Assembly (NCBI GenBank): GCA_964036045.1
Contig: OZ038402.1
Coordinates: 1,457,380 to 1,521,379 of the forward strand
DNA from: Eutreptiella sp. 'Long Island Sound 2002'
Lineage: Eukaryota > Euglenozoa > Euglenophyceae > Eutreptiales > Eutreptiaceae
Length of the DNA stretch: 64,000 nucleotides
Direction of reading: 5' to 3'
In this document: positions 9,258 through 58,629 of the stretch, one piece after another
Layout: the number at the start of each line of letters is the position of its first letter
Numbering within the stretch: position 1 is the first letter of the stretch
The notes under the pieces: generated by a model
What the model saw: the letters and a program-made list of their open reading frames with translations, nothing else
Told to the model about the DNA's origin: nothing
Database searches by the model: none
Position numbers and translations under genes: made by a program

Positions 9258-11897
9258 TCATATGGCTGTTGGCGACCCATCTCCTAACCAGGGCACTCCT
9301 GGCACCTGAAGGGTCCTGACTGGACTGCCACCGCGAATCCCGCACATAGCCTCGGATACGTGTGAGTGGGCGTCAAACGACCCGTCACCTGCGGACTGCC
9401 CCATCGCACAGTATTGCAGTGCTTCATACATGTGGTGTGCAGTAGGATACGGTTTGCTCCACACATGATTCTGCCCGGCGAGCTTGGCTTCGGCGATGTC
9501 CTGCTTGCTGGTGTGGGTTGTCGCCCCGATGATGATGGCGGGCTTCAGCTGCTTGTGCCTCTCAAGGGCTCGGATGGCTATCGTGGTTTCCCATCCGTCC
9601 AAATCGCCGCCTGCAGGGGCCAGGTTCTTGTCCATCGTAATCAACTGGAAGCTGCTAGACTGCTTCACTTGCCGCACTGCCTCCTCTCCCGTGGAAACGC
9701 AGATCACATTCCACTTTGCTGGGGCAAACACATCGGACTCGGTGAACCGGATCTTCAGCAGCTTCTGGTTGATGAGGCTGTCGTCCACGACCATCACATT
9801 CCAATCATACATGGACAACGAAGGCGGGGCAGGTCGTGGAGCAGGGGCAAAAAGGGTGGAAGATGTGGAGCCATCGGACTTTGTGCTGCACGAGAGAACG
9901 GCGCTCCTGGGACCGAAAACGGACCGACTGCCCGAGGACGACGACTGCGCGGTGCCAGACATCCGAAACTGTCGAATGCTGTTCGGGGCACTAAACGAGT
10001 GGTGACGGACGGCCGCGGGCAACTGGCCAGAAGAGGTCTGGGATTCTCCATTTGTAGAGAAAGGGCTCTCGGACAGTGAGGTTGTTGAGGCTGAGGCTGG
10101 CATTGCACACGACATGCGGAGCTGGTGATCGGTCTCAACAACGTCTTCCATTGTGATGAGCTGGCGACTGGCAGCGCAGATAAGCTCCAGCGCGGGGTGC
10201 AGCAATGCCGCGTGCTTCGAAAGGAGCTCGCCCATTGGATTTCCGTCACTTCTACTGATGTCCGCCTGAGCAAACTCCTCCAACTGCTCCAACGAGTCGG
10301 CAATCATGGTGTAGGCGGTTGAGATGGGGTTGATGACCTTGTCATTGACACCGTCAATGAAACGCTTAACGCTTGCATGACGTAGGCTGGGATCATCTTT
10401 GTGGGCGAAAACCATGTGCACGGCTTGGCTGCCTACTCCAAACGTGGTGGTGGTGGCATACACCTCTACTTCGGTCCCATGCTCGTGCCTCATCTTGGCG
10501 AGCTGCCAACAGGGGTCAGCGGGATTTGTTGAGGACAACAATGGAGATTTGCAAAAAATGGAATTGTGAGACTTTCCGAGGGCGTCTCCGACGCTGCCGA
10601 ATCCCACCAGACGGCACATGGCTGCATTTGCGAAGGTGACCACCATGTCCGCATCAAACACCACCACAGCCTCTCGCAGATTCTCAAGCAGGGCTTGATA
10701 CGGCTGCAACCGAGCACTGTCCCTGAGGTCTCTAATGTCCTGGAACTTCAAAGACCAAACACTGCCCCCCAGCCAAGTCGCACTCACCGCAGCCGTCCAG
10801 GAAAGGCACGAGCTGTCGGGTTGTATGCAGACCACAACAGGGGATTTCTCATCACAGAAAACGGTCTCGAACACGTGGAGATCGCTCTGGACCACAAGAT
10901 TGCGGATGTTCTCGCCCTTTTTGCACTTCAGAAGTCGCCTGTGCCGGTCACACAGGGAGAGCATCCGCCCGGTTTGCTTGTCAATCAAAGTGGCGGCAGT
11001 GAGACCCAGCGGCTCGAGGACTTCGGATACGTGATGCAGAGCCACTATTCCGGCGATCATGACCCACTGGTTGAAGTATGCAGCTGCCCAATACCACACA
11101 CTCGTGTACAGCATCCACAAATTGACGCCCCATGGCACAATGATGAACACCAGCACAGCCAGCGATGCATGGATAGTCACATGTTTGATGCAACTGTAGG
11201 GGAGCTTCCAGGTCAGGGCGACGAGACCCACACAGCGGAAGGCCAAAGGCAGAACGATGGCAGCAACGCTGATGTACGCCCCCGTCCTCCAAGGCTCTAC
11301 GGCCTTGTAGACACACGGTTCCTCGAATTCCAGCTGCAAGACGGTGCAGACAGCAAAGAACACCGCGGCGCAAGCAGCTAAAAGATGCAGCAAGCGTGTC
11401 AGGCAATTTCGACGGCTGGGTTGCTCTTTGTCGGTGTGGAGGATTCCGGATAACTTGCACTGGATTGCAGACAGGAAGACCAATACTGCGACATTCGCAC
11501 ACCATGTGGTCCCACAACGGACAACCTGTCGTATGCAGCTAACCACCCCACCATGAGCGGGACTATCCAGAAGCATTACGAGGGACTGGATGAGACTCAA
11601 CCAGCAGAGCGATTTGGTGGCTCCATGAAGGAGGCAGTTGTTGAAGAATGTGTCGTATCGAAGCAAATGGACTGCTGTCATCAGCATGGCAATGTGCACT
11701 GCGGTTTCTAGGCCGATGGACAGGAAATCGATGTGCAGTACGCTCAAAGAAATGTGCAAAGTCCCGAGAAATATGGTGATCAGCATTTTCCACGGCTTCT
11801 TGTAAGGGTGAGGGTGATGGGGCTTAATCCTCGGTGATGATGGCGATGGGAGTGAGAGGGGTTGAAGCGGGGAACGCAGCTGGGGAAATGCCATCAT
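9258..11897 (-). CDS. Multi-pass membrane protein with PAS domain, degenerate kinase dimerisation segment and receiver domain
   Basis: Intronless, 879 aa from the ATG at 11897 (the frame stays open to a TTG two codons upstream). Seven or eight hydrophobic segments lie between residues ~39 and 290. A PAS-like domain spans ~399-503 (LLENLREAVVVFDADMVVTF). Residues ~510-590 look like a two-helix histidine-kinase dimerisation segment in which the usual H is D519 (FIDGVNDKVINPIS). No ATP-binding domain follows; a Ser-rich linker leads to a receiver domain (~699-829) with the full residue set: D705/D706, phospho-acceptor D756, T793 and K815. A working receiver without its own kinase suggests it is phosphorylated by a partner or acts as a phosphate sink. 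Ends in TGA. Likely role: membrane sensor in a phosphorelay; ligand unknown. Confidence 0.85.
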   Translation of the reverse strand: MMAFPQLRSPLQPLSLPSPSSPRIKPHHPHPYKKPWKMLITIFLGTLHISLSVLHIDFLSIGLETAVHIAMLMTAVHLLRYDTFFNNCLLHGATKSLCWLSLIQSLVMLLDSPAHGGVVSCIRQVVRCGTTWCANVAVLVFLSAIQCKLSGILHTDKEQPSRRNCLTRLLHLLAACAAVFFAVCTVLQLEFEEPCVYKAVEPWRTGAYISVAAIVLPLAFRCVGLVALTWKLPYSCIKHVTIHASLAVLVFIIVPWGVNLWMLYTSVWYWAAAYFNQWVMIAGIVALHHVSEVLEPLGLTAATLIDKQTGRMLSLCDRHRRLLKCKKGENIRNLVVQSDLHVFETVFCDEKSPVVVCIQPDSSCLSWTAAVSATWLGGSVWSLKFQDIRDLRDSARLQPYQALLENLREAVVVFDADMVVTFANAAMCRLVGFGSVGDALGKSHNSIFCKSPLLSSTNPADPCWQLAKMRHEHGTEVEVYATTTTFGVGSQAVHMVFAHKDDPSLRHASVKRFIDGVNDKVINPISTAYTMIADSLEQLEEFAQADISRSDGNPMGELLSKHAALLHPALELICAASRQLITMEDVVETDHQLRMSCAMPASASTTSLSESPFSTNGESQTSSGQLPAAVRHHSFSAPNSIRQFRMSGTAQSSSSGSRSVFGPRSAVLSCSTKSDGSTSSTLFAPAPRPAPPSLSMYDWNVMVVDDSLINQKLLKIRFTESDVFAPAKWNVICVSTGEEAVRQVKQSSSFQLITMDKNLAPAGGDLDGWETTIAIRALERHKQLKPAIIIGATTHTSKQDIAEAKLAGQNHVWSKPYPTAHHMYEALQYCAMGQSAGDGSFDAHSHVSEAMCGIRGGSPVRTLQVPGVPWLGDGSPTAI

Positions 11898-12340
11898 AGT
11901 CAAGTCCTGGAACAGAATCCGCAGAGATACAGAACGTCAGCAGCCTACCCGCACCACGCGTGAGGCACGTGAGGCACTCTCTTAGCCCCAGGGGATCTGG
12001 GATCGCCCAAGTGGAGTGGCCGGGGCACGGTCACCTGTGCGCAAGCACGCTGCCAGACCACACATCAGGGATGCGCCTCCTCAAGGCCCTTGGCTATGCC
12101 ACAATGCCAGATCGGGAACCAGGGCAGCCACTCCAATAGTGAAAAATGTAAGTCGTGCACGAAAAAATCGTCTAGTCGTGTAATTCTATTGCCTTCGGCA
12201 GTGCACCTCGAAGAGAGGTTGACAGTCAGCCAATCAGTCCCTGAGCCAGCAAGCAGGCAGTCAGACAGATACACACAGTTTGGGTTTTTTGTCAGTGGCA
12301 GATGCGGCCCCAAGCAGCAGGGAGGCCTTTCGACGCAATA
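11898..12340. other. Upstream region of the sensor gene; no other gene
   Basis: Presumably holds the promoter of the minus-strand gene, but no core element is recognisable. 12163-12181 (AAAATCGTCTAGTCGTGT) matches in reverse a motif at 46184-46200 within another repeat, so part of this is repeat-derived. Confidence 0.4.
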
Positions 12341-24453: not shown

Positions 24454-25902
24454 TCAATGGGGCTTAAGCTTTAGCAGCTGCTGCAGGGTGACACCGCTGG
24501 ACACCGGCTGCTGTTGTACCCGGCATTTGTCAGTGCCTCGGTGGGTGGCGTGCACTACAATCTGAAGTAAAGATTGAAAAAATTGGAGATCGACAATGAC
24601 TTGGAGTCGGTCACTTTTGGGGTTCCCAACAGGTTGCCCACTGCCCAATTCTTCATACAATGACGAGATCTCACAGACCTGCCTCGACATTTCCTGCATG
24701 GCTGCAGCTCCTTTCGTTAGAGCCTGCCCGGCCTCTGGCTGTGACGGCAAATTGCAGCGTTCGCTGTGGTACCTGGTCGTTTGGTTGTTGGCTGCATCTC
24801 CAACAGCATTCGCTTGACAGGTCTCCACACCGTCTCTCGGCACCTTTTCTTCGTTGATACAGCGGAGCTCAGCCCGGCCATGTGCAAAAAAGCATTTGGC
24901 TCCAAAATCGCACTGACCAGTCAACCAATTGCGGCAGATGGTCGTTTTGTACTTGGCCGGGTCTGCAAGAGCATTGCATCGCACACTGCTCTGGCAGTCG
25001 CTGCCTGGCGCCTTGTCTTCTTTGAGAGGCCGTAGCTCTCCTTGGCCATGTGCAAAAAAACATCGAGCCCCATAGTCACACTCACCTGTCACCCAATTCC
25101 GGCAAATGGTCGTCTTGTACTTTGCTGGGTCTCCAATCACATTGTGCCGCAGGTCGTTCTGACTGTTGTCCGCATTTTCCTTTTCACCAGCCCGAAGTTC
25201 ACTGTCGCCGTGAGCGAAAGTACAACCGGTCCCAAACTCGCAGTGACCATTCAGCCAATTGTGGCAAAGGCGGGTCTTGTACTTGGGCGTGGACTCATTC
25301 ACCACCAGCTTCTGCTTCTGCATTGAAGTCCCAACTTCGGAAGATTGAAGTTCAGCATGGCCATGGGCAAAAATACAACGGGCTCCGAACTCACACTCAC
25401 CTTGCAACCAGTTGCGGCAGATGCGGGTCTTATACCTGGCTGCTTTGTCATCAGAGAGTTGAAACTGCGAGGTCTCCACTGCTGGAGGCTCTGGACCAGA
25501 GCCAGGCTCCAGCATATCCCTCAGGTGGATTCCGGACACAGGTTTACCACACGCCTGGGTCTCATAAAAAGCATTAACCACCTGCTCAAGGTTGCGGTGC
25601 TTCATCCCTTTGCCTCCGTCATCCAAAGCCATGTTCAACGAGGGTACGACCTCTTGAAAAGGGTCTTGAGAGGATATTGAGCACGTCGACGCACGGCCGC
25701 TGACGCTCTCTGTCAGGCCCAGGCTGTCACTGCCCTCATGGTCAGTGCTTTTTTGACTCCGTCTCCAACTATCCGCCTGAGCATCCGTCCACTTGGCACA
25801 CAATACTTCCACCATCGCATCTATCTTATCGGTCATCTCCATATCTGCATCCAGGTAGATGTTGAGAGCTTGCGAGTACACTGCATCGGGCACCGTGGTC
25901 AT
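24454..25902 (-). CDS. Tandem CCCH zinc-finger protein (probable RNA-binding)
   Basis: Intronless, 482 aa from ATG at 25902 (the open frame extends 44 codons further upstream to a TTG). Four CCCH fingers of spacing C-x7-C-x5-C-x3-H: C162-C170-C176-H180, C213-C221-C227-H231, C267-C275-C281-H285 and C323-C331-C337-H341. Each is led by YKT(R/T)(I/L)C, like the (R/K)YKTEL lead-in of TIS11/TTP proteins that bind AU-rich mRNA. The fingers repeat every ~50-56 residues with near-identical sequence (CRNWLTGQCDFGAKCFFAHG), implying internal duplication; a decayed fifth unit follows (~362-384). The N-terminal 150 residues are acidic and finger-free. Ends in TGA. Likely cytoplasmic or nuclear regulator of mRNA; target unknown. 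Spacing x7 rather than x8 sets it apart from canonical TTP. Confidence 0.88.
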   Translation of the reverse strand: MTTVPDAVYSQALNIYLDADMEMTDKIDAMVEVLCAKWTDAQADSWRRSQKSTDHEGSDSLGLTESVSGRASTCSISSQDPFQEVVPSLNMALDDGGKGMKHRNLEQVVNAFYETQACGKPVSGIHLRDMLEPGSGPEPPAVETSQFQLSDDKAARYKTRICRNWLQGECEFGARCIFAHGHAELQSSEVGTSMQKQKLVVNESTPKYKTRLCHNWLNGHCEFGTGCTFAHGDSELRAGEKENADNSQNDLRHNVIGDPAKYKTTICRNWVTGECDYGARCFFAHGQGELRPLKEDKAPGSDCQSSVRCNALADPAKYKTTICRNWLTGQCDFGAKCFFAHGRAELRCINEEKVPRDGVETCQANAVGDAANNQTTRYHSERCNLPSQPEAGQALTKGAAAMQEMSRQVCEISSLYEELGSGQPVGNPKSDRLQVIVDLQFFQSLLQIVVHATHRGTDKCRVQQQPVSSGVTLQQLLKLKPH

Positions 25903-26250
25903 ATTGCGAAAAGTGGCTGCGGCGAAAGTGTAATGAAAGCAGGTTTGAACAAGAGTGCTGTGTGGTGTTTCACTGTGATGACGTCGGTTCAGCTCAATGC
26001 TCTGTTGCCCTGATCCCCCCCGAAAGAGGGACAAGGGACTCCCAGCAAAACTTCACGCACAACTCAAAACAAAACTACTGGAATTTTTGGTTGTGATTCA
26101 AAAGAGCACGATGCAGCCATTCAATGGCTGAAGCCCGGCTCCAAGCCGATTGATTGGCATACAGTAGACCTGGCCCACGTGGCCCTGGGCTGTCTGGCAG
26201 CCAAATCTCATCAACTATGGGGACAAAGGGACACAACATGACTCATATGT
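25903..26250. other. Upstream region of the CCCH gene
   Basis: No separate gene. The promoter presumably lies here; no recognised element. Confidence 0.4.
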
Positions 26251-33632: not shown

Positions 33633-33832
33633 NNNNNNNNNNNNNNNNNNNNNNNNNNNNNNNNNNNNNNNNNNNNNNNNNNNNNNNNNNNNNNNNNNNN
33701 NNNNNNNNNNNNNNNNNNNNNNNNNNNNNNNNNNNNNNNNNNNNNNNNNNNNNNNNNNNNNNNNNNNNNNNNNNNNNNNNNNNNNNNNNNNNNNNNNNNN
33801 NNNNNNNNNNNNNNNNNNNNNNNNNNNNNNNN
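33633..33832. other. Assembly gap of exactly 200 N
   Basis: A round 200-N block marks a scaffold join; its true size is unknown. ORFs drawn across it are meaningless. Confidence 1.
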
Positions 33833-37367: not shown

Positions 37368-40300
37368 TACGGTACCGCAGCGCGGCGGTACCGGTACCGA
37401 AGCGCGGCTGTACCGGTACCGCAGCCCGGCTGTACTGGTACCGAAGCGCGGCTGTACCATTACCGAAGCGCGGCTGTACCGGCACCGCAGCGCGGCTGTA
37501 CTGGTACCGCAGCGCGGCTGTACCGGTGCCGAAGCGCGGCTGTACCGGTACCGCAGCGCGGCTGTACCGGTACCAAAGCACGGCTGTACCAATACTGCAG
37601 CGCGGTTGTACCGGTACCGCAGCCCGGCTGTACCGGTGCCGAAGCGCGGCTGTACCGGTACCAAAGCGCGGCTGTACCAATACTGCAGCGCGGTTGTACC
37701 GGTACCGCAGCCCGGCTGTACTGGTACCGCAGCGCGGCTGTACCATTACCGAAGCGCGGCTGTACCGGCACCGCAACGCGGCTGTACCAATACCGCAGCG
37801 CGGCTGTACCGGTGCCGAAGCGCGGCTATACCGGTACCGCAGCGCGGCTGTACCGGTACCGAAGCGCGGCTGTACCGGTACCGAAGCGCGGCTGTACCGG
37901 TACCGAAGCGCGGCTGTACCGGTACCGCAGCGCGGCTGTACCGGTACCGCAGCGCGGCTGTACCGGTACCGCAGCGCGGCTGTACCGGTACCGAAGCGCG
38001 GCTGTACCGGTACCGAAGCGCGGCTGTACCGGTACCGCAGTGCGGCTGTACCGGTACCGAAGCTCGGCTGTACTGGTACCGAAGCGCGGCTGTACCGGTA
38101 CCGCAGCGCGGCTGTACCGGTACCGCAGCGCGGCTGTACCGGTACCGCAGCGCGGCCGTACCGATACCGCAGCGCGGCTGTACCGGTACCGAAGCGCGGT
38201 TGTACCGGTACCACAGCGCGGCTGTACCGGCTATACCGGTACCAAAGCGCGGCTGTGCCGGTACCGCAGCGCGGCTGTGCCTGTAACGCGGCGCGGCTGT
38301 ACCGGTACCGCAGCGCGGCTGTACCGGTACCGAAGCGCGGCTGTACCGGTACCGAGGCGCGGCTGTACCGGTACCGAAGCGCGGCTGTACTGGTACCTTA
38401 GCGCGGCCGTACCGGTACCGAAGCGCGGCTGTACCGGTACCGAAGCGCGGCTGTACTGGTACCGAAGCGCGGCTGTACCGGTACCGCAGCGCGGCTGTAC
38501 CGGTACCGCAGCGCGGCTGTACCGGTACCGCAGCGCGGCTGTACCGGTACTGCAGCGCGGCTGTACCGATACCGAAGCGCGGCTGTACCGGTACCGAAGC
38601 GCGGTTGTACCGGTACCACAGCGCGGCTGAACCGGCTGTACCGGTACCAAAGCGCGGCTGTGCCGGTACCGCAGCGCGGCTGTGCCTGTAACGCGGCGCG
38701 GCTGTACCGGTACCGCAGCGCGGCTGTACCGGTACCGAAGCGCGGCTGTACCGGTGCCGAGGCGCGGCTGTACCGGTACCGAAGCGCGGCTGTACTGGTA
38801 CCTTAGCGCGGCCGTACCGGTACCGAAGCGCGGCTGTACCGGTACCGAAGCGCGGCTGTGCTGGTACCGAAGCGCGGCTGTACCGGTACCGCAGCGCGGC
38901 TGTACCGGTACCGAAGCGCGGCTGTACTGGTACCAAAGCACGGCTGTACCGGTACCAAAGCGCGGCTGTACCGGTACCGAAGCGCGGCTGTACCGGTACC
39001 GCAGCGCGGCTGTACCCGTACCGCAGCGCGGCTGTACCGGTACCAAAGCGCGGTTGTACCGGTACCGAAGCGCAGGCTGTACCGGTACCGAAGCGCGGAT
39101 GTACCAGTACCACAGCGCGGCCGTACCGGTACCGCAGCGCGGCTGTACCGGTACCGCAGCGCGGCTGTACCGTTACCGCAGCGCGGCTGTACCGGTACCG
39201 TAGCGCGGCTGTACCGGTACCGCAGCCCGGCTGTACTGGTACCGCAGCGCGGCTGTACCGGTACCGCAGCCCGGCTGTACCGGTACCGCAGCGCGGCTGT
39301 ACCGGTACCGCACCGCGGCTGTACCGGTACCGAAGCGCGGCTGTACTGGTACCAAAGCACGGCTGTACCGGTACCAAAGCGCGGCTGTACCGGTACCGCA
39401 GCGCGGCTGTACCGGTACCGCAGCGCGGCTGTACCCGTACCGCAGCGCGGATGTACCGGTACCAAAGCGCGGCTGTACCGGTACCGAAGCGCAGGCTGTA
39501 CCGGTACCGAAGCGCGGATGTACCGGTACCGCAGCGCGGCTGTACCGGTACCGCAGCGCGGCTGTACCGGTACTGCAGCGCGGCTGTACCGGTACTGCAG
39601 CGCGGCTGTACCGTTACCGCAGCGCGGCTGTACCGGTACCGTAGCGCGGCTGTACCGGTACCGCAGCGCGGCTGTACCATTACCGAAGCGCGGCTGTACC
39701 GGCACCGTAGCGCGGCTGTATCCACCGCAGCGCGGCTGTACCGGTGCCGAAGCGCGGCTGTACCGGTACCAAAGCGCGGCTGTACCGATACTGCAGCGCG
39801 GTTGTGCCGGTACCGAAGCGCGGCTGTACCGGTACCACAGCGCGACTGTACCGGCACCGCAGCGCGGTTGTACTGGTACCGAAGCGCGGCTGTACCGGTA
39901 CCGCAGCGCGGCTGTACCGGTCCCGAAGCGCGGCTGTACCGGTACCGCAGCGCGGCTGTACCGGTACCGCAGCGCGGCTGTACCGGTACCGAAGCACGGC
40001 TGTACCGGTAGCGAAGCGCGGCTGTACCGGTAACGAAGCGCGGCTGTACAGGTACCGAAGCGCAGCTGTACCAGTACCACAGCGCGACTGTACCGGCACC
40101 GCAGCGCGGTTGTACTGGTACCGAAGCGCGGCTGTACCGGTACCGCAGCGCGGCTGTACCGGTCCCGAAGCGCGGCTGTACCGGTACCGCAGCGCGGCTG
40201 TACCGGTACCGCAGCGCGGCTGTACCGGTACCGAAGCACGGCTGTACCGGTAGCGAAGCGCGGCTGTACCGGTAACGAAGCGCGGCTGTACAGGTACCGC

Positions 40301-43300
40301 AGCGCGGCTGTACTCGTACCGAAGCGCGGCTGTACTGGTACCGAAGCGCGGCTGTACCGGTACCGAAGCGCGGCTGTACCGGTACCGCAGCGCGGCTGTA
40401 CCGGTACCGCAGCGCGGCTGTACCGGTACCGAAGCGGTACCGAAGCGCGGCTGTACCGGTACCGCAGCGGTGCTGTACCGGTACCAAAGCGCGGATGTAC
40501 CGGTACTGAAGCGCGGCTGTACCGGTACCGAAGCACGGCTGTACCGGTACCGCGGCGAGGCTGTACCGGTAACGAAGCGCGGCTGTACAGGTACCGCAGC
40601 GCGGCTGTACAGGTACCGCAGCGCGGCTGTACTGGTACCGAAGCGCGGCTGTACCGGTACCGCAGCGGTGCTGTACCGGTACCAAAGCGCGGATGTACCG
40701 GTACTGAAGCGCGGCTGTACCGGTACCGAAGCACGGCTGTACCGGTACCGCGGCGAGGCTGTACCGGTAACGAAGCGCGGCTGTACCGGTACCGAAGCGC
40801 GGCTGTACCGGTACCGCAGCGCGGCTGTACCGGTACCGCAGCGCGGCTGTACCGGTACCGCAGCGCGGCTGTACCGGTACCGAAGCGGTACCGAAGCGCG
40901 GCTGAACCGGTACCAAAGCGCGGCTGTACCGGTACTGAAGCGCGGCTGTACCAGTACCAAAGCGCGGCTGTACCGGTACCGAAGCGCGGCTATACTGGTA
41001 CCGAAGCGCGGCTGTACCGGTACTGCAGCGCGGCTGTACCGGTACCGAAGTGCGGCTGTACCGGTATCGCAGCGCGGCTGTACCGGTACCGAAGCGGTAC
41101 CGCAGCGCGGCTGTACCGGTACCAAAGCGCGGCTGTACCGGTACTGAAGCGCGGCTGTACCAGTACCAAAGCGCGGCTGTACCGGTACCGAAGCGCGGCT
41201 GTACTGGTACCGAAGCGCGGCTGTACCGGTACTGCAGCGCGGCTGTACCCGTACCGAAGTGCGGCTTCTACCCGTACCGAAGCGCGGCTGTACCGGTACC
41301 GCAGCGCGGCTGTACCGGTACCGAGGCGGTACCGCAGCGCGGCTGTACCGGTACCAAAGCGCGGCTGTACCGGTACTGAAGCGCGGCTGTACCAGTACCA
41401 AAGCGCGGCTGTACCGGTACAGAAGCGCAGCTGTACTGGTACCGAAGCGCGGCTGTACCGGTATTGCAGCGCGGCTGTACCGGTACCGAAGTGCGGCTGT
41501 ACCGGTACCATAGCGCGGCTGTACCATTACCGAAGCGCGGCTGTACCGGTATCGCAGCGCGGCTGTACCGGTACCGCAGCGCAGCTGTACCATTACCGAA
41601 GCACGGCTGTACCGGTACCACAGCGCGGCTGTACCGGTACCGAAGCGCGGCTGTACTGGTACCGAAGCGCGGCTGTACCGGTACCGAAGCGCGGCTGTAC
41701 CGGTACCGCAGCGCGGCTGTAATGGTACCGAAGCGCGGCTGTACCGATACCGCAGCGCGGCTGTACCGGTACCGAAGCGCGGCTGTACCAGTACCGAAGC
41801 GCGGCTGTACTGGTACCGAAGCGCGGCTGTACCGGTACCGCAGCGCGGCTGTACCGGTACCGAAGCTCGGCTGTACTGGTACCGCAGCGCGGCTGTACCG
41901 GTACCGAAGCGCGGTTGTACCGGTACTGAAGCGCAGCTGTACGTACTGCAGCGCAGCTGTGCCATTACCGCAGCGCGGCTGTACCGGTACCGTAGCGCGG
42001 CTGTACCGGTACCGCAGCGCAGCTGTACCGTTACCCAAGCGCGGCTGTACCGGTGCCGAAGCGCGGCTGTACCGGTATCAAAGCGCGGCTGTACCGGTAC
42101 CGAAGCGCAGCCGTACCGGTACCGAAGCGCGGCTGTAGCGGTACCGCAGCGCGGCTGTACCGGTACCGCAGCGCGGCTATACCGGTACCGAAGCGCGGCT
42201 GTACCGGTACCGAAGCGCGGCTGTACTGGTACCGAAGCGCGGCTGTACCGGTACCGCAGCGCGGCTGTACCGGTACCGAAGCGCGGCTGTACCGGTACCG
42301 TAGCGCGGCTGTACCGGTACCGCAACGCAGCTGTACCGTTACCCAAGCGCGGCTGTAGCGGTACCGCAGCGCGGCTGTACCGGTATCGAAGCGCGGCTGT
42401 ACCGGTACCGAAGCGCGGCCGTACCGGTACCGCAGCGCGGCTGTAGCGGTACCGCAGCGTGGCTGTACCGGTACCGCAGCGCGGCTGTACCGGTACCGAA
42501 GCGCGGTTGTACCGGCACCGCAGCGCGGCTGTACCGGTACCGCAGCGCGGCTGTACCGGTACCGCAGCGCGGCTGTACCATTACCGAAGCACGGCTGTAC
42601 CGGTACCGAAGCGCGGCTGTACCGGTACCGCAGCGCGGCTGTACCGGTACCGCAGCGCGGCTGTACCGGTACCAGAGCACGGCTGTACCGGTACCAAAGC
42701 GCGGCTGTACCGGTACCGAAGCGCAGCCGTACCGGTACCGAAGCGCGGCTGTAATGGTACCGAAGCGCGGCTGTACCGATACCGCAGCGCGGCTGTACCG
42801 GTACCGAAGCGCGGCTGTACCGGTACCGAAGCGCGGCCCTTACCGAAGCGCGGCTGTACCGGTACCGCAGCGCGGCTGTACCGGTACCGAAGCGCGGCTG
42901 TACCGGTACCGTAGCGCGGCTGTACCGGTACCGCAGCGCAGCTGTACCGTTACCCAAGCGCGGCTGTAGCGGTACCGCAGCGCGGCTGTACCGGTACCGA
43001 AGCGCGGCTGTACCGGTACCGAAGCGCGGCCGTACCGGTACCGCAGCGCGGCTGTAGCGGTACCGCAGCGTGGCTGTACCGGTACCGCAGCGCGGCTGTA
43101 CCGGTACCGAAGCGCGGCTGTACCGGTACCATAGCGCGGCTGTACCGGTACCGCAGCGCGGCTGTACCGGTACCGAAGCGCGGCTGTACCGGTACCGCAG
43201 CGCGGCTGTACCGGTACCGCAGCGCGGCTGTACCGGTACCGCAGCGCGGCTGTACCATTACCGAAGCACGGCTGTACCGGTACCGAAGCGCGGCTGTACC

Positions 43301-44006
43301 GGTACCGAAGGACGGCTGTACCGGTACCGCAGCGCGGCTGTACCGGTACCGGAGCGCGGCTGTACCGGTACCGCAGCGCGGCTGTAATGGTACCGAAGCG
43401 CGGCTGTACCGGTACCGAAGCGCGGCTGTACTGGTACCGAAGCGCGGCTGTACGGGTACCGCAGTGCGGCTGTACCGGTACCGCAGCGCGGCTGTACCGG
43501 TACCGAAGCGCGGCTGTACCGGTACCGCAGCGCGGCTGTACCGGTACCGCAGCGCGGCTGTACCGGTACCGCAGCGCGGCTGTACCGGTACCGCAGCGCG
43601 GTTGTACCGGTACCGAAGCGCGGCTGTACCGGTACCGCAGCGCGGCTGTACCGGTACCGCAGCGCGGCTGTACCGGTACCGAAGCGCGGCTGTACCGGTA
43701 CCGCAGGGCGGCTGTACCGGTACCAAAGCGCGGTTGTACCGGTACCGAAGCGCAGCTGTACGTACTGCAGCGCAGCTGTACCATTACCGCAGCGCGGCTG
43801 TACCAGTACCGCAGCGCGGCTGTACCGGTACTGCAGCGCAGCTGTACCGTTACCCAAGCGCGGCTGTACCGGTGCCGAAGCGCGGCTGTACCGGTATCAA
43901 AGCGCGGCTGTACCGGTACCAAAGCGCAGCCGTACCGGTACCGAAGCGCGGCTGTAGCGGTACCGCAGCGCGGCTGTACCGGTACCGCAGCGCGGCTATA
44001 CCGGTA
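37368..44006 (+). repeat. 22-bp satellite array, left (long) arm
   Basis: About 300 copies of GCGCGGCTGTACCGGTACCG followed by AA or CA. The penultimate base (A or C) is the main variable site; single substitutions elsewhere. Higher-order structure is visible: a block with the unusual words CTGTAACGCGGCG and CCTTAGCGCGGCC occurs at 38228-38412 and again about 405 bp later, and blocks containing the deletion junction GAAGCGGTACC recur near 40435, 40883, 41091 and 41327. The unit has no stop codon in most registers, so ORFs up to 1056 codons with a 22-residue period arise on both strands; they are by-products. Confidence 0.97.
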
Positions 44007-44044
44007 CCCTAACCCTAACCCTAACCCTAACCCTAACCCTAACC
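44007..44044 (+). repeat. Six CCCTAA telomere repeats at the satellite inversion point
   Basis: Six exact copies of CCCTAA plus CC. On the plus strand this is the orientation of a left chromosome end whose body would lie to the right. Left junction GGTACCCTAA overlaps the satellite's GGTACC; right junction is AACCGAAGGTACCGG. Confidence 0.98.
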
Positions 44045-45416
44045 GAAGGTACCGGTACAGCCGCGCTTTGGTACCGGTACAGCCGCGCTGCAGTACCGGT
44101 ACAGCCGCGCTGCAATACCGGTACAGCCGCGCTGCGGTGCCGGTACAGCCGCGCTTCGGTACCGGTACAGCCGCGCTTTGGTACTGGTACAGCCGCGCTT
44201 CGGTACCGGTACAGCCGCGCTTCGGTACCGGTACAGCCGCGCTGCGGTACCGGTACAGCCGCGCTTCGGTACCGGTACAGCCGCGCTGCGGTACCGGTAC
44301 AGCCGCGCTGCGGTACCGGTACAGCCGCGCTGCGGTACCGGTACAGCCGCGCTTCGGCACCGGTACAGCCGCGCTTTGGTACCGGTACAGCCGCGCTGCG
44401 GTACCGGTACAGCCGCGCTTCGGTACTGGTACAGCCGCGCTTCGGTACCGGTGCAGCCTCGCCGCGGTACCGGTACAGCCGCGCTGCGGTACCAGTACAG
44501 CCGCGCTTCGGTACCGGTACAGCCGCGCTTTGGTACCGGTACAGCCGCGCTGCGGTACCGGTACAGCCGCGCTTCGGTACCGGTACAGCCGCGCTTCGGT
44601 ACCGGTACAGCCTCGCCGCGGTACCGGTACAGCCGCGCTGCGGTACCAGTACAGCCGCGCTTCGGTACCGGTACAGCCGCGCTTCGGTACCGGTACAGCC
44701 GCGCTTCGGTACCGGCACAACCGCGCTTCGGTACCGGTACAGCCGCGCTTCGGTACCGGTACAGCCGCGATTCGGTACCGGTACGCCGCGCTTCGCTACC
44801 GATACAGCCGCGCTTTGGTACCGGTACAGCCGCGCTTCGGTACCGGTACAGCCGCGCTTCAGTATCGGTACAGCCGCGCTTCGGTACCGGTACAGCCGCG
44901 CTTCGGTACCGGTACAGCCGCGATTTGGTACTGGTACAGCCGCGCTTTGGTACCGGTGCAGCCGCGCTTCGGTACCGCTACAGCCGCGCTTCGGTACCGG
45001 TACAGCCGCGCTTTGGTACCGGTACAACCGCGCTTCGGTACCGGTACAGCCGTGCTTCAGTACCGGTACAGCCGCGCTGCGGTACCGGTACAGCCGAGCT
45101 TCGGTACCGGTACAGCCGCGCTTCGGTACCGGTACAACCGCGTTGCGGTACCGGTACAGCCGCGCTTCGGTTCCGGTACAGCCGCGCTGCGGTACCGGTA
45201 CAGCCGCGCTTCGGTACCGGTACAGCCGCGCTGCGGTACCGGTACACCCGCGCTTCGGTACCGGTACAGCCGCGCTTTGGTACCGGTACAGCCGCGCTGC
45301 GGTACCGGTACAGCCGCGCTTTGGTACAGGTACAGCCGCGCTTCGGCACTAGTACAGCCGCGCTGCGGTACCGGTACAGCCGCGCTTCGGTACCGGTACA
45401 GTCGCGCTGCGGTACC
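44045..45416 (-). repeat. 22-bp satellite array, right (short) arm, inverted
   Basis: About 62 copies of the same unit in reverse complement (CGGTACCGGTACAGCCGCGC), with the same A/C versus T/G variable site. Ends at a run of the 10-bp CCCCATAGG repeat. Confidence 0.97.
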
Positions 45417-45466
45417 AGGTCCCCATAGGCCCCCATAGGCCCCCATAGGTCCCCATAGGTCCATAG
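45417..45466. repeat. Short run of the CCCCATAGG minisatellite bordering the satellite
   Basis: Four to five units of the repeat that forms 13314-13745. Confidence 0.9.
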
Positions 45467-45519: not shown

Positions 45520-45945
45520 AGACCATTTTTGAGCTGCCGAGGCTGGTAAACTACATAAGCAGGTTGTGCCTTGGACCCCTTGGGAGCCCCCCCCCCCCAA
45601 AAAAAAACCAAGTAGGGTGAAGAACACATAAAGAGGGGTTAAAACATGCTTTCCATAGGATATTTGATCATTTTGGATGGTCAAAGTATCAAAAAAATCA
45701 GTTTTGGAAATTTCCATTTTTGAGTTGCTGAGGCGGGAAAACTGCTTAAGCAGGTTGTGCCCTAGACCCCTTTGGGAGCCCCCCCCCCCCCCCAACACCC
45801 AGATAGGGTGAAAACCACATAAAGAGGGGCTAAATCAAGCTTTACATAGCATATTTCATCATTGTGAGTGGTCACAATATCAAACTTTTTTTGCAAAATT
45901 TTCCATTTTTGACTTGCAGAGGGTGGAAAACTGCTTAAGCAGTTT
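45520..45945. repeat. Repeat C, two diverged tandem copies
   Basis: TTTTTGAGCTGCCGAGG, AAACT(A/G)C(A/T)TAAGCAGG, C-run, AGGGTGAA(G/A)A(A/C)CACATAAAGAGG, ATGCTTTCCATAG; more diverged from the 27.5-kb copies than those are from each other. Confidence 0.85.
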
Positions 45946-45959
45946 GTGCACACACCAAA

Positions 45960-56302: not shown

Positions 56303-57473
56303 CACCGAGCTGGTGGAACCAGTCTTGGTTTTATAACCCTTTTTAGGGTCTAGAGTGGACCTACCAGGTTTAGCAGCAGCAGCAACAAGCAGCAAGCAGC
56401 AACAAGCAGCAAGCAGCACGCGCGAAATGGGGAAAAATCAGAACTCCGTCGTGGTGCTTCACATTCGGCTGAAATTTTGGTGGATGATACCTATGGGTGT
56501 GAGGGACAACCACACAAAGTTTGAGCCAGAAACTCAACGGTGGCGGCCGGGATTGGGTGTCGCAAGTGGCGGACCTCATTTTCAAAAACTGCAATTTAGG
56601 GCCAAAAACAGCCATTTTTGGGCCAAAAGAGCCCTAGAACCCATTCAAAACGGCCAAGGAAAGGTAAAAGGGTGGGTGCACTCCATGTGCGGCTTGACTT
56701 TCTTGTGTCAACGAGCCATTTGCGGCCCTCTGACTCCACCATATGTCCCGGAAACGGCCCAAAAAGGCCCCCACAAGCCCCAAATTTTGTGCAGATTGGC
56801 TGGCGACAGCCACAAACCAAGAATAGGCCATATCTTTGGCTACATGGCTCAAAACGCGATTCCAAGGGCACCTAATCCACCCGCAACCCCCCTCGTTTTG
56901 TGGTTTCCACCCCTCAAAATTGCCCAAATGGACGCCTAGACCCCCGTACCCAAGCCCAATAGGCTGCGGCAAGCTGCAAGCTCAAGCCCAAACAGGTGGG
57001 TGCCCAAATGGGTCAATAGGGTCCAATAGGGGCAGAAAAATGACTTTTCTCAAAAATGATCCTAGACCATGTGTGATGCTAAAACAAGTGTTTTTGGACT
57101 GTTTTGAGCTTGGGGTGGCCCATTTTGGTCCTCCGAAAATCCCAAAATGCCTTGAAGATGCGCTGTTTTGGGACCAAAAATGGGTCAAAAATGGGTCAAA
57201 ACCGCATTTTTCCAAAACTCATCCTAGACCATTTGGGGTGCACAAATGGGTGAAATGAGCCTATTTTGAGCCCATTTTGGGGCATTTTGGCCCCTCACAA
57301 GTCCATAAAAGCCTTGAAAGTGGGCCTTGTGGTGAAGGGGATCACTTGCAAGCTGATTCCACCCTGTCAACGGCCTTCAATGTGTAACTCATTGGTGTCC
57401 CTCACCATTCATATCTAATGTTCCCTCCCCCACCAGCTCGGTCCCAATATTCAGTCTTGATTAGGGCTAGGGT
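56303..57473. repeat. 1171-bp subtelomere-like unit, copy 1
   Basis: Begins CACCGAGCTGGTGGAACC and ends CACCAGCTCGGTCCC... then GATTAGGG. Its two ends carry an inverted GGACCGAGCTGGTGG-type word. Contains a CAG-rich patch (56370-56420) and repeated CCAAAAATGGGTCAAAA phrases. ORFs up to 194 codons recur in shifted form in copy 2 and are not conserved as protein. Confidence 0.9.
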
Positions 57474-58629
57474 CACCGAGCTGGTGGAACCAGTCTTGGT
57501 TTTATAACCCTTTTTAGTGTCTAGGGTGCACCTACCAGGTTTAGCAGCAAGCAGCAGCAAGCAGCAGCAAGCAGCAAGCAAGCAGCAGCACGCGCGAAAT
57601 GGGGAAAAAATCAGAACTCCGTCGTGGTGCTTCGGATTTGGCTGAAATTTTGGTGGATGATACCGATGGGTGTGAGGGACAACCCTACAAAGTATGAGCA
57701 AGAAACTCAACGGTGGCGGCCGGGAACAGCTGTCGCAAGTGGCGGACCTCAGTTTCAAAAACTGCAGTTTAGGGCCAAAACAGCCATTTTTGGGCCAAAA
57801 AAGCCCTAGAACCCATTCAAAACGGCCAAACAAAGGGAAACGGTGGGTACACTGCACGTGCGGCTTGACTTTCCTGTGTCAACAAGCCCTTTGCGGCCCT
57901 CTAACTCCACCATATGTCCGGAAACGGCCCAAAAAGGCCCCCAGAAGCCCCAAATTTTGTGCAGATTGGCTGGCGACAGCCACAAACCAAGAACAGGCCA
58001 TATCTTTGGCTACATGGCTCAAAATGCGATTCCGAGGGCACCTAGTCCACCCGCAACCCCCCTCGTTTTGTGGTTTCCACCCCTCAGAATTGCCCAAATG
58101 AACGCCTAGACCCCCATACATAGCCCCAGCAGGCTGCGGCAAGCTGCAAGCTCAAGCCCAAACAGGTGGGTGCCCAAATGGGTCAACAGGGTCCAGTAGG
58201 GGCAAAAAATGACTTTTTTCAAAAATGATCCTACACCATGTGTGATGCTAAAACAAGTGTTTTTGGACCATTTTGAGCTTGTGGTGGCCCATTTTGGTCC
58301 TCCGAAAATCCCAAAATGCCTTGAAAATGGGCTGTTTTGGGACCAAAAATGGGTCAAAAATGGGTCAAAAACACATTTTTCCAAAACTCATCCTAGACCA
58401 TTTGGGGTGCACCAACGGGTGAAATGAGCCCATTTTGAGCCCATTTTGGGGGAATTTGGCCCCTCAGAAGTCCAAAGAAGCCTTGAAAGTGGGCCTTGTG
58501 GTGATGGGGATCACTTGCAAGCTGATTCCACTCTATCAACGGCCTTCAATGTGTGACTCATTGGTGTCCCTCACCATTCATATCTAATGTTCCTTCCCCA
58601 ACCAGCTCGGTCCCAATATCCAGTCTTGA
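57474..58629. repeat. Subtelomere-like unit, copy 2
   Basis: Same unit, separated from copy 1 by GATTAGGGCTAGGGT and followed at 58630 by TTAGGG repeats. The copies differ by scattered substitutions and small indels, mostly in the CAG patch. Confidence 0.9.

What the first reader, a model, noticed from the sequence alone, without database searches (positions are those of the whole stretch)
37368..45416. Inverted 22-bp satellite arms meeting at a CCCTAA telomere block
About 300 copies in one orientation and about 62 in the other face each other across six exact CCCTAA repeats. Seen directly. The right arm plus telomere has exactly the layout of a chromosome left end (CCCTAA, satellite, CCCCATAGG repeats, repeat C). 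The left arm is attached to the outer side of that telomere in inverted orientation. Inference: an end-to-end fusion with loss of one telomere, a capture of telomere repeats, or a false palindromic join. If real, it is a dated fusion scar with the subtelomeric satellite preserved on both sides.
Basis: partly seen in the sequence, partly recalled or inferred. Interest (0 to 1): 0.85.

Follow-up and report, generated by a model that had tools for sequence, protein, structure and literature searches.

The report
Telomere patch inside an inverted satellite
In a euglenoid alga's chromosome, an array of a 22-letter repeat flips direction at one point, and six telomere repeats sit at the flip; this looks like a scar of a mended DNA break inside the chromosome rather than two chromosome ends that fused.

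Summary
About 302 copies of a 22-bp satellite (37370-44008) face about 62 inverted copies (44048-45416), with one orientation switch and exactly six CCCTAA repeats (44007-44042) beside it. The unit is a near-palindrome, so orientation rests on 4 of 22 positions, but these are nearly clean.

The chromosome-end reading is weakened. The window lies 1.46-1.52 Mb into a 25.9-Mb scaffold of a 2.28-Gb euglenophyte genome. All 200 exact 29-mers of the satellite lie here or inside scaffold C19. The two telomere-bearing ends seen (first 10 kb of C7 and C19) have 5-6 kb of CCCTAA, then other repeats. CCCCATAGG and 'repeat C' are dispersed.

Best explanation: telomeric repeats inserted at a double-strand break, coupled to an inverted satellite junction. 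Without the 36 bp the site is a hairpin with a 3-nt loop, the best hairpin axis of 7,894 positions. Horse ITSs with inversions are a published precedent.

The class recurs: head-to-head telomere blocks lie between inverted arrays of other satellites on C27 (arms 99.7% alike) and C15 (99.1%). The window's arms keep no mirror order, which argues against a fold-back read or recent sister fusion, but not against other misjoins. No reads were available.

The parts
37370..44008 (+). Left satellite arm, about 302 unit lengths of CGGTACCGCAGCGCGGCTGTAC (near-palindromic 22-mer), one orientation throughout
   Evidence: TRF; orientation path model; empty-site boundary 44008
44007..44042 (+). Interstitial telomeric block, six exact CCCTAA; as an insert relative to the satellite it is (CTAACC)x6 at 44009-44044, 36 bp
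   Evidence: exact match; boundaries
44045..44047 (.). GAA: the 3-nt spacer/loop that would separate the two arms if the telomeric block were absent
   Evidence: DNA fold of joined flanks, stem closing on a 3-nt loop, -18.1 kcal/mol for 40 nt
44048..45416 (-). Right satellite arm, about 62 unit lengths, inverted
   Evidence: orientation path model and diagnostic positions
45417..45462 (+). CCCCATAGG decamer repeats abutting the right arm; a genome-wide dispersed repeat (20,712 exact 29-mers)
   Evidence: TRF; genome count
45523..45949 (+). 'Repeat C', about 191-bp tandem unit, 2.2 copies; relatives (70-75% alike) at 16.8 kb and 27.5 kb of the window and copies on many scaffolds
   Evidence: TRF; BLAST; genome search
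33633..33832 (.). Run of 200 N, most likely an assembly gap; the array and everything to its right lie in one N-free stretch

Best explanation
This is a rearrangement scar inside a chromosome. A double-strand break in an interstitial 22-bp satellite array was repaired with telomeric repeats (six TTAGGG units added to the right-hand 3' end, in telomerase's direction), and the repair is coupled to an inverted junction of the array. Shown: one orientation switch in about 365 units; 36 bp of pure telomere repeat beside it; flanks that, without the repeats, read as continuous satellite TACC^GAAG; and a site at the 5' edge of the 3-nt loop of the strongest hairpin axis in the array. Inferred: either (a) the inversion came first and the hairpin tip broke and was patched, or (b) break, telomere addition and inverted joining were one event. 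By either route the 36-bp insert lengthens the spacer from 3 to 39 nt, which by yeast data should make the palindrome less prone to nuclease cutting. No function for the array is implied.
For: The ITS site is the best hairpin axis of 7,894 positions (loops 3-8, stems scored to 60 bp; score 45, best elsewhere 27). The empty site is satellite on both sides with GG at the 3' end in register with TTAGGG; in mammals most ITSs enter at breaks with 1 or more in-register nucleotides (67-80% of informative loci in four species, PMC2246262, passages; 31 of 40 in horse, PMC7215372). Three horse ITS loci came with inversions or inverted duplications. The satellite is internal: 88+24 of 200 exact 29-mers in the window, the other 88 on C19 at 12.3 and 14.35-14.36 Mb, all one way there. 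The two arms fit each other's unit profile (log-likelihood per unit of the right arm -5.10 +/- 0.12 under left, -5.38 +/- 0.15 under C19a, -6.13 +/- 0.10 under C19b) and share the GAAG-type consensus, unlike the GCAG-type C19 arrays (printed before that script failed). ITSs are common in this genome: at least 22 separate places on C1 (capped list). Two of 20 C1 ITSs sit inside tandem arrays in direct orientation. The same kind of axis with other satellites on C27 and C15.
Against: No empty orthologue or sister allele was available, so insertion is inferred from neighbouring units. The microhomology is only 2 nt. The profile difference between left arm and C19a is about two standard deviations, and exact 44-mer sharing runs the other way: right arm 25.6% with C19a, against 14.8-24.4% (mean 19.6%) for left sub-arrays of equal size; at 33-mers 39.9% against 38.6-45.6%. 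Why the array is inverted is not explained by ITS insertion alone. GAA could also be filler or a degenerate first repeat (TTCGG), which would favour fusion of a capped end. 19 of 20 sampled C1 ITSs have no inverted flanks, and 16 of 21 head-to-head ITSs have none longer than 15 bp, so the link between ITS and inversion is a minority pattern. A 70-nt fold around the block alone is no better than shuffles.
Confidence: 0.6

Rival explanations
1. End-to-end fusion scar: two ends (natural or newly capped within satellite) fused head to head, one telomere half was then lost and the arms diverged.
For: Head-to-head TTAGGG..CCCTAA blocks (gap up to 20 nt) occur at 26 places and the opposite order at 0 in the whole genome. 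On C27 and C15 such blocks lie exactly between inverted satellite arms; the 198-bp family at the C15 site is near the left ends of C10, C19 and C20 in one orientation and, in the other, on C3, C8 and C12 (capped list).
Against: The window block is single-orientation and 36 bp; the 22-bp satellite was listed only in scaffold interiors; no part of the subtelomeres of C7 or C19, nor the 198-bp or 21-bp satellite, matches the window at E 1e-5, while a positive control does; arms show no mirror order.
Confidence: 0.2
2. Assembly artefact: a chimeric or fold-back read, or a false join of two satellite contigs.
For: There is a run of 200 N 3.5 kb left of the array, 10 kb left of the junction; on C1 at 200.83 Mb a run of N is directly followed by CCCTAA repeats (N may be a gap or a withheld stretch); near-perfect palindromes at C27 and C15 could themselves be such artefacts.
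Against: Mirror-order identity of units is 0.9038 against 0.9033 +/- 0.0033 for permuted order (best of all shifts 0.9152, at 19 units), so the arms are not copies of one another read back, whereas C27 and C15 give 99.7% and 99.1% in mirror register. No N between 33833 and 64000. An assembler does not invent the 36-bp block.
Confidence: 0.12
3. The telomeric block came in with, or is the tail of, a mobile element.
For: A dispersed family with ..CCACCAGCTCGGT.. next to TTAGGG/CCCTAA-like repeats recurs in this genome and at three places in this window.
Against: At 44 kb the block is flanked directly by satellite on both sides; that family's marker is not there.
Confidence: 0.04
4. Chance: microsatellite growth from a variant unit next to an independent inversion.
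For: Rare units read GGTACCTTAG, which contains TTAG.
Against: Needs a variant unit next to the only switch of the array; the insert is six pure repeats with satellite on both sides.
Confidence: 0.04

Closest known systems
Short interstitial telomeric sequences inserted during double-strand-break repair (primates, rodents, horse; PMC2246262, PMC7215372)
   Same: Short pure telomere repeats; flanks that read as uninterrupted sequence once the block is removed; 2 nt in register at the 3' end; three horse loci carry inversions or inverted duplications at the insertion site (passages of both papers and section 2.5 of the second).
   Different: Lies in a satellite array beside its only orientation switch; a euglenophyte, not a mammal; no empty orthologue compared.
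Fusion ITS (human 2q13 type; head-to-head, as described in passages of PMC7215372)
   Same: Telomere repeats between two blocks of repetitive DNA in opposite orientation.
   Different: Single-orientation, 36 bp, satellite not found at chromosome ends, no matching subtelomeric sequence beside it.
Inverted-repeat axis loci C27:1,269,025-1,269,212 and C15:57,975,639-57,975,811 of the same genome
   Same: Telomeric block on the axis of inverted satellite arms.
   Different: Head-to-head telomere repeats, arms 99.7% and 99.1% alike in mirror register; other satellites (21 bp, 198 bp).
Fragile inverted repeats cut as hairpins by Mre11-type nucleases (yeast, PMC8053094; E. coli SbcCD, PMC4245961)
   Same: The empty site would be an inverted repeat with a 3-nt spacer, inside the <9-nt range of Mre11/Sae2 attack (PMC8053094 abstract and one section; PMC4245961 passages).
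   Different: No test in a euglenoid; arms here are about 90% alike, not identical.

Membership tests
Short ITS of the DSB-repair type | Short pure telomeric repeat at a non-terminal site | tested here: met
   36 bp exact, 1.50 Mb inside a 25.9-Mb scaffold
Short ITS of the DSB-repair type | Flanks contiguous in an ITS-less orthologue | tested here: inconclusive
   Only neighbouring satellite units could serve as the empty state: TACC^GAAG is a common unit form (41% of 228 left-arm units); no orthologue available
Short ITS of the DSB-repair type | Nucleotides at the 3' break end in register with the telomeric repeat | tested here: met
   GG at the 3' end of CTTCGG before TTAGGG; 2 nt only
Fusion ITS (head-to-head) | TTAGGG array followed by CCCTAA array | tested here: not met
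   CCCTAA only; the genome-wide head-to-head search lists 26 places, none here
Fusion ITS (head-to-head) | Subtelomeric sequence beside the block | tested here: not met
   No match at E 1e-5 to 3.7-4.7 kb of C19 and C7 subtelomere or to the 198-bp satellite anywhere in the window; positive control matched. Other chromosome ends not read
Subtelomeric satellite | Located next to terminal telomere arrays | tested here: not met
   All 200 exact 29-mers in C25 1.49-1.50 Mb and C19 12.3/14.35-14.36 Mb; diverged copies listed are also internal (capped list). Only two telomere-bearing ends were read, 10 kb each
Fold-back (palindromic read) artefact | Second arm is the mirror copy of the first, unit by unit | tested here: not met
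   0.9038 against permuted 0.9033 +/- 0.0033; best of all shifts 0.9152
Real genomic junction | Single molecules span it | not testable with these tools
   No reads held

The most novel reading that the evidence does not exclude
In this euglenophyte, breaks inside satellite DNA are repeatedly capped with short telomere repeats and joined head to head. Telomere blocks then mark the axes of inverted satellite arrays in several unrelated satellite families, and the block acts as a spacer that makes the resulting palindrome less fragile. The window would be an old member of the class, and C27 and C15 young ones.
Probability: 0.25. Interest if true: 0.65.

Novelty: new variant of a known kind. Interest (0 to 1): 0.42.

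Why it matters
ITS insertion with rearrangement has been documented in mammals. A genome where telomere blocks sit on the axes of inverted arrays of three unrelated satellites (22, 21 and 198 bp) would show the route in a distant eukaryote, and would give a graded series (near-identical arms at C27 and C15, fully reshuffled arms in the window) for how such palindromes age. It also offers a test of whether a telomeric insert at a palindrome centre stabilises it.

Tried and rejected
Mirror test for a fold-back origin of the right arm: no trace (earlier ungapped sliding comparisons, lost register after indels). Right arm as an import from the C19 arrays: the unit profile favours the left arm modestly, but 44-mer sharing slightly favours C19a, so this is not closed. 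Shared flanks between satellite loci (a carrier element): the 120-bp flanks printed look unrelated and BLAST found only dispersed repeats. The junction elsewhere in the genome: the right junction is unique at up to 2 mismatches; the left 20-mer has one more exact match, at C5:15,022,331, not followed up, and 12 with one mismatch, while the reversed control had 8. Mobile-element tail: rejected on flanks. Literature, judged from listings: four searches on ITS insertion, on Euglena telomere plus satellite, on ITS plus satellite plus inversion breakpoints, and on subtelomeric palindrome fusions showed no title or abstract start reporting this locus or class in Euglena; only open-licence papers are held. 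The main text of PMC11252322 has 0 occurrences of 'telomer' and of 'satellite'.

C25:1-10000 reads N throughout, so its own end could not be checked. Five of 26 head-to-head places were not fetched; two of the 22 listed C1 ITSs (200.0 and 200.8 Mb) were looked at but are not in the flank statistics. One search stopped with an error after printing consensus lines; the rest was rerun. The comparison printed nothing and was repeated with a positive control.
Full report
WHERE IT IS. The window is G000:C25:1457380-1521379; the genome has 2.28 Gb in 2,205 contigs, and C25 is 25.93 Mb. That sequence is printed for Eutreptiella in the abstract of PMC3621762 (search listing), so the genome is a euglenophyte; genus and species are not settled. 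Its scaffold C1 is 201 Mb, whereas the largest chromosome of the published E. gracilis assembly is 121.4 Mb (PMC11252322, passages), so it is not that assembly.

WHAT IS THERE. A 22-bp satellite runs from 37370 to about 45416 (365 copies). A path model with two orientations finds one switch, at 44047/44048. The unit equals its own reverse complement at 18 of 22 positions, so 'inverted arms' rests on four positions, which are nearly clean: 62/62, 62/62, 60/62 and 60/64 inverted letters in the right arm, against 1/306, 0/305, 2/301 and 1/301 in the left. The block (CCCTAA)x6 at 44007-44042 is exact. Taken as an insert it is 36 bp, 44009-44044; removing it leaves ...CGGCTATACCGGTACC-GAA-GGTACCGGTACAGCCG..., which folds as a hairpin with a 3-nt loop (-18.1 kcal/mol for 40 nt, -69.0 for 120 nt). 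Among 7,894 positions of the ITS-less array (loops 3-8, stems to 60 bp) this is the best hairpin axis (score 45; best elsewhere 27). Since the switch itself makes that axis, this says that the block lies within 3 nt of the only switch. With the block present the 141-nt region folds far below shuffles (-54.8 against -24.9 +/- 2.7 kcal/mol) with the block in the loop; a 70-nt piece around the block alone does not (-5.7 against -4.9 +/- 1.8).

IS IT A CHROMOSOME END? No support. The exact 29-mer of the satellite occurs 200 times in the genome: 88 forward and 24 reverse in the window, and 88 on C19 (16 at 12.32, 67 at 14.350, 5 at 14.360 Mb), all in one orientation there. Diverged copies are listed at C21:5.44, C16:17.71 and C7:82.75 Mb (a capped list). 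In 10-kb stretches around these six other arrays, none has three or more exact telomere repeats inside the array; the C16 stretch has three CCCTAA copies outside it. Of four left ends fetched (10 kb each: C1, C7, C19, C25), two carry telomere arrays: C7 has 880 and C19 1,055 copies of CCCTAA, followed by palindromic repeats (GGTCTATAGACC on both; GTCCGACGGAC on C7), with no CCCCATAGG and no satellite. C1 shows no telomere array and C25 reads N. Four right ends (2 kb each) show no telomere array. CCCCATAGG occurs 20,712 times as an exact triple 29-mer, and repeat C is on many scaffolds.

DO THE ARMS BELONG TOGETHER? Both have the same consensus (GAAG type), while the C19 arrays are GCAG type. 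The right arm's log-likelihood per unit is -5.10 +/- 0.12 under left-arm profiles, -5.38 +/- 0.15 under C19a and -6.13 +/- 0.10 under C19b. Against this, exact 44-mer sharing is higher with C19a (25.6%) than with left sub-arrays of equal size (14.8-24.4%); at 33-mers it is within their range (39.9% against 38.6-45.6%). Mirror-order identity is 0.9038, no better than permuted order (0.9033 +/- 0.0033); the best of all shifts is 0.9152, at 19 units. So the right arm is not a recent fold-back of the left, and a hairpin-read artefact, which would give near identity, is very unlikely.

TELOMERIC BLOCKS ELSEWHERE IN THIS GENOME. The exact 38-mer has 22 separate places in the listed part of C1 (list cut at 100 rows). 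I fetched 20 of these 22 for flank statistics: 1 has inverted flanks (C1:120.43 Mb, 132 bp identical), 2 lie inside direct tandem arrays (C1:584,161, in a repeat like that of the C7 subtelomere, and C1:100,870,442), 1 has only a 17-bp direct match, 16 show nothing. Head-to-head TTAGGG..CCCTAA (gap up to 20 nt) occurs at 26 places; the opposite order at none. Of 21 head-to-head places examined (20 fetched plus C1:120.43), 5 have inverted-flank scores of 33-132 (C1:120.43, C6:121.17, C15:57.98, C27:1.27 and contig C1097, the last two with the same flanks), 7 score 8 and 9 score 4-6; 60 random flank pairs gave a maximum of 7 and a mean of 5.2, so the scores of 8 are barely above chance. On C27 the arms are a 21-bp satellite, 99.74% alike without gaps over 4,988 bp, which is almost all that was fetched; on C15 a 198-bp satellite of about 1.07 kb per side within arms that are 99.09% alike over 2,316 bp. 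The 198-bp family lies near the left ends of C10, C19 and C20 in one orientation, in the other on C3, C8 and C12, and the C15 copy is 58 kb from the end of its scaffold (capped list; the lengths of C3, C8, C10, C12 and C20 were not seen). The near-perfect C27 and C15 palindromes may themselves be assembly artefacts; that was not tested.

HOW IT MOST LIKELY AROSE. Orientation and register fit telomerase adding repeats to the 3' end on the right side of a break: bottom strand ...CTTCGG then TTAGGG, with GG in register. In mammals, ITSs enter in one step at breaks and most have such in-register nucleotides (PMC2246262, passages; PMC7215372, section 2.5). Three horse loci combine ITS insertion with inversions or inverted duplications. 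In yeast, Mre11/Sae2 attack on inverted repeats needs loops under 9 nt (PMC8053094, abstract and one section), so a 3-nt spacer would be open to attack and a 39-nt one not. This suggests hairpin-tip break and patch, or one combined event; I cannot separate them. Six pure repeats in satellite that differs by 5-7% from its consensus weakly favour a younger insert.

VERDICT. Real sequence feature, wrong setting for a fusion of natural chromosome ends; most likely a rearrangement-associated ITS in an interstitial satellite, and one of a small recurring class in this genome.

Noticed in passing
G000 C27:1269025-1269212 (L079, L083, L084) and C15:57975639-57975811 (L080, L085, L086): Head-to-head telomere repeats between inverted satellite arms, 99.74% alike over 4,988 bp and 99.09% over 2,316 bp. 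The C27 flanks recur on contig C1097.
   Followed up: partly
window 56304, 57433-57475, 58602; L034, L035, L040, L041, L064, L066, L068: A dispersed repeat family in which ..CCAGCTCGGT.. (in some copies in both orientations) adjoins TTAGGG/CCCTAA-like repeats, so part of this genome's interstitial telomere repeats travels with a repeat family.
   Followed up: partly
whole genome G000: TTAGGG..CCCTAA (gap up to 20 nt) at 26 places, CCCTAA..TTAGGG at none.
   Followed up: partly
L021, L022 (left ends of C7 and C19): Subtelomeres made of short palindromic repeats (GGTCTATAGACC; on C7 also AAATTGTCCGACGGACAATTT-type and GAGGGGATAATTTTAAATTATCCCCTC-type units) next to 5-6 kb of CCCTAA.
   Followed up: no
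C3:164.04-164.71 Mb: The 198-bp satellite, otherwise listed mostly near scaffold ends, forms many blocks in one orientation at this place; possible old fusion region.
   Followed up: no
L081, C1:200828400-200829000: A run of N (gap or withheld) directly followed by CCCTAA repeats, 137 kb before the end of C1: possibly a telomere-bearing contig start placed internally.
   Followed up: no
C1 ITSs L037, L047, L082: Three ITSs share the same flanking sequence (L037 and L047 compared over about 270 bp per side at 97%; L082 seen by eye), so one ITS locus was duplicated or is part of a repeat.
   Followed up: no
window 9258-11936 (-) and 24454-26052 (-): Open frames with a PAS domain and (below cut-off) a response-regulator domain, and with four CCCH zinc-finger stretches.
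   Followed up: partly
window 33633-33832: Run of 200 N, most likely an assembly gap.
   Followed up: yes
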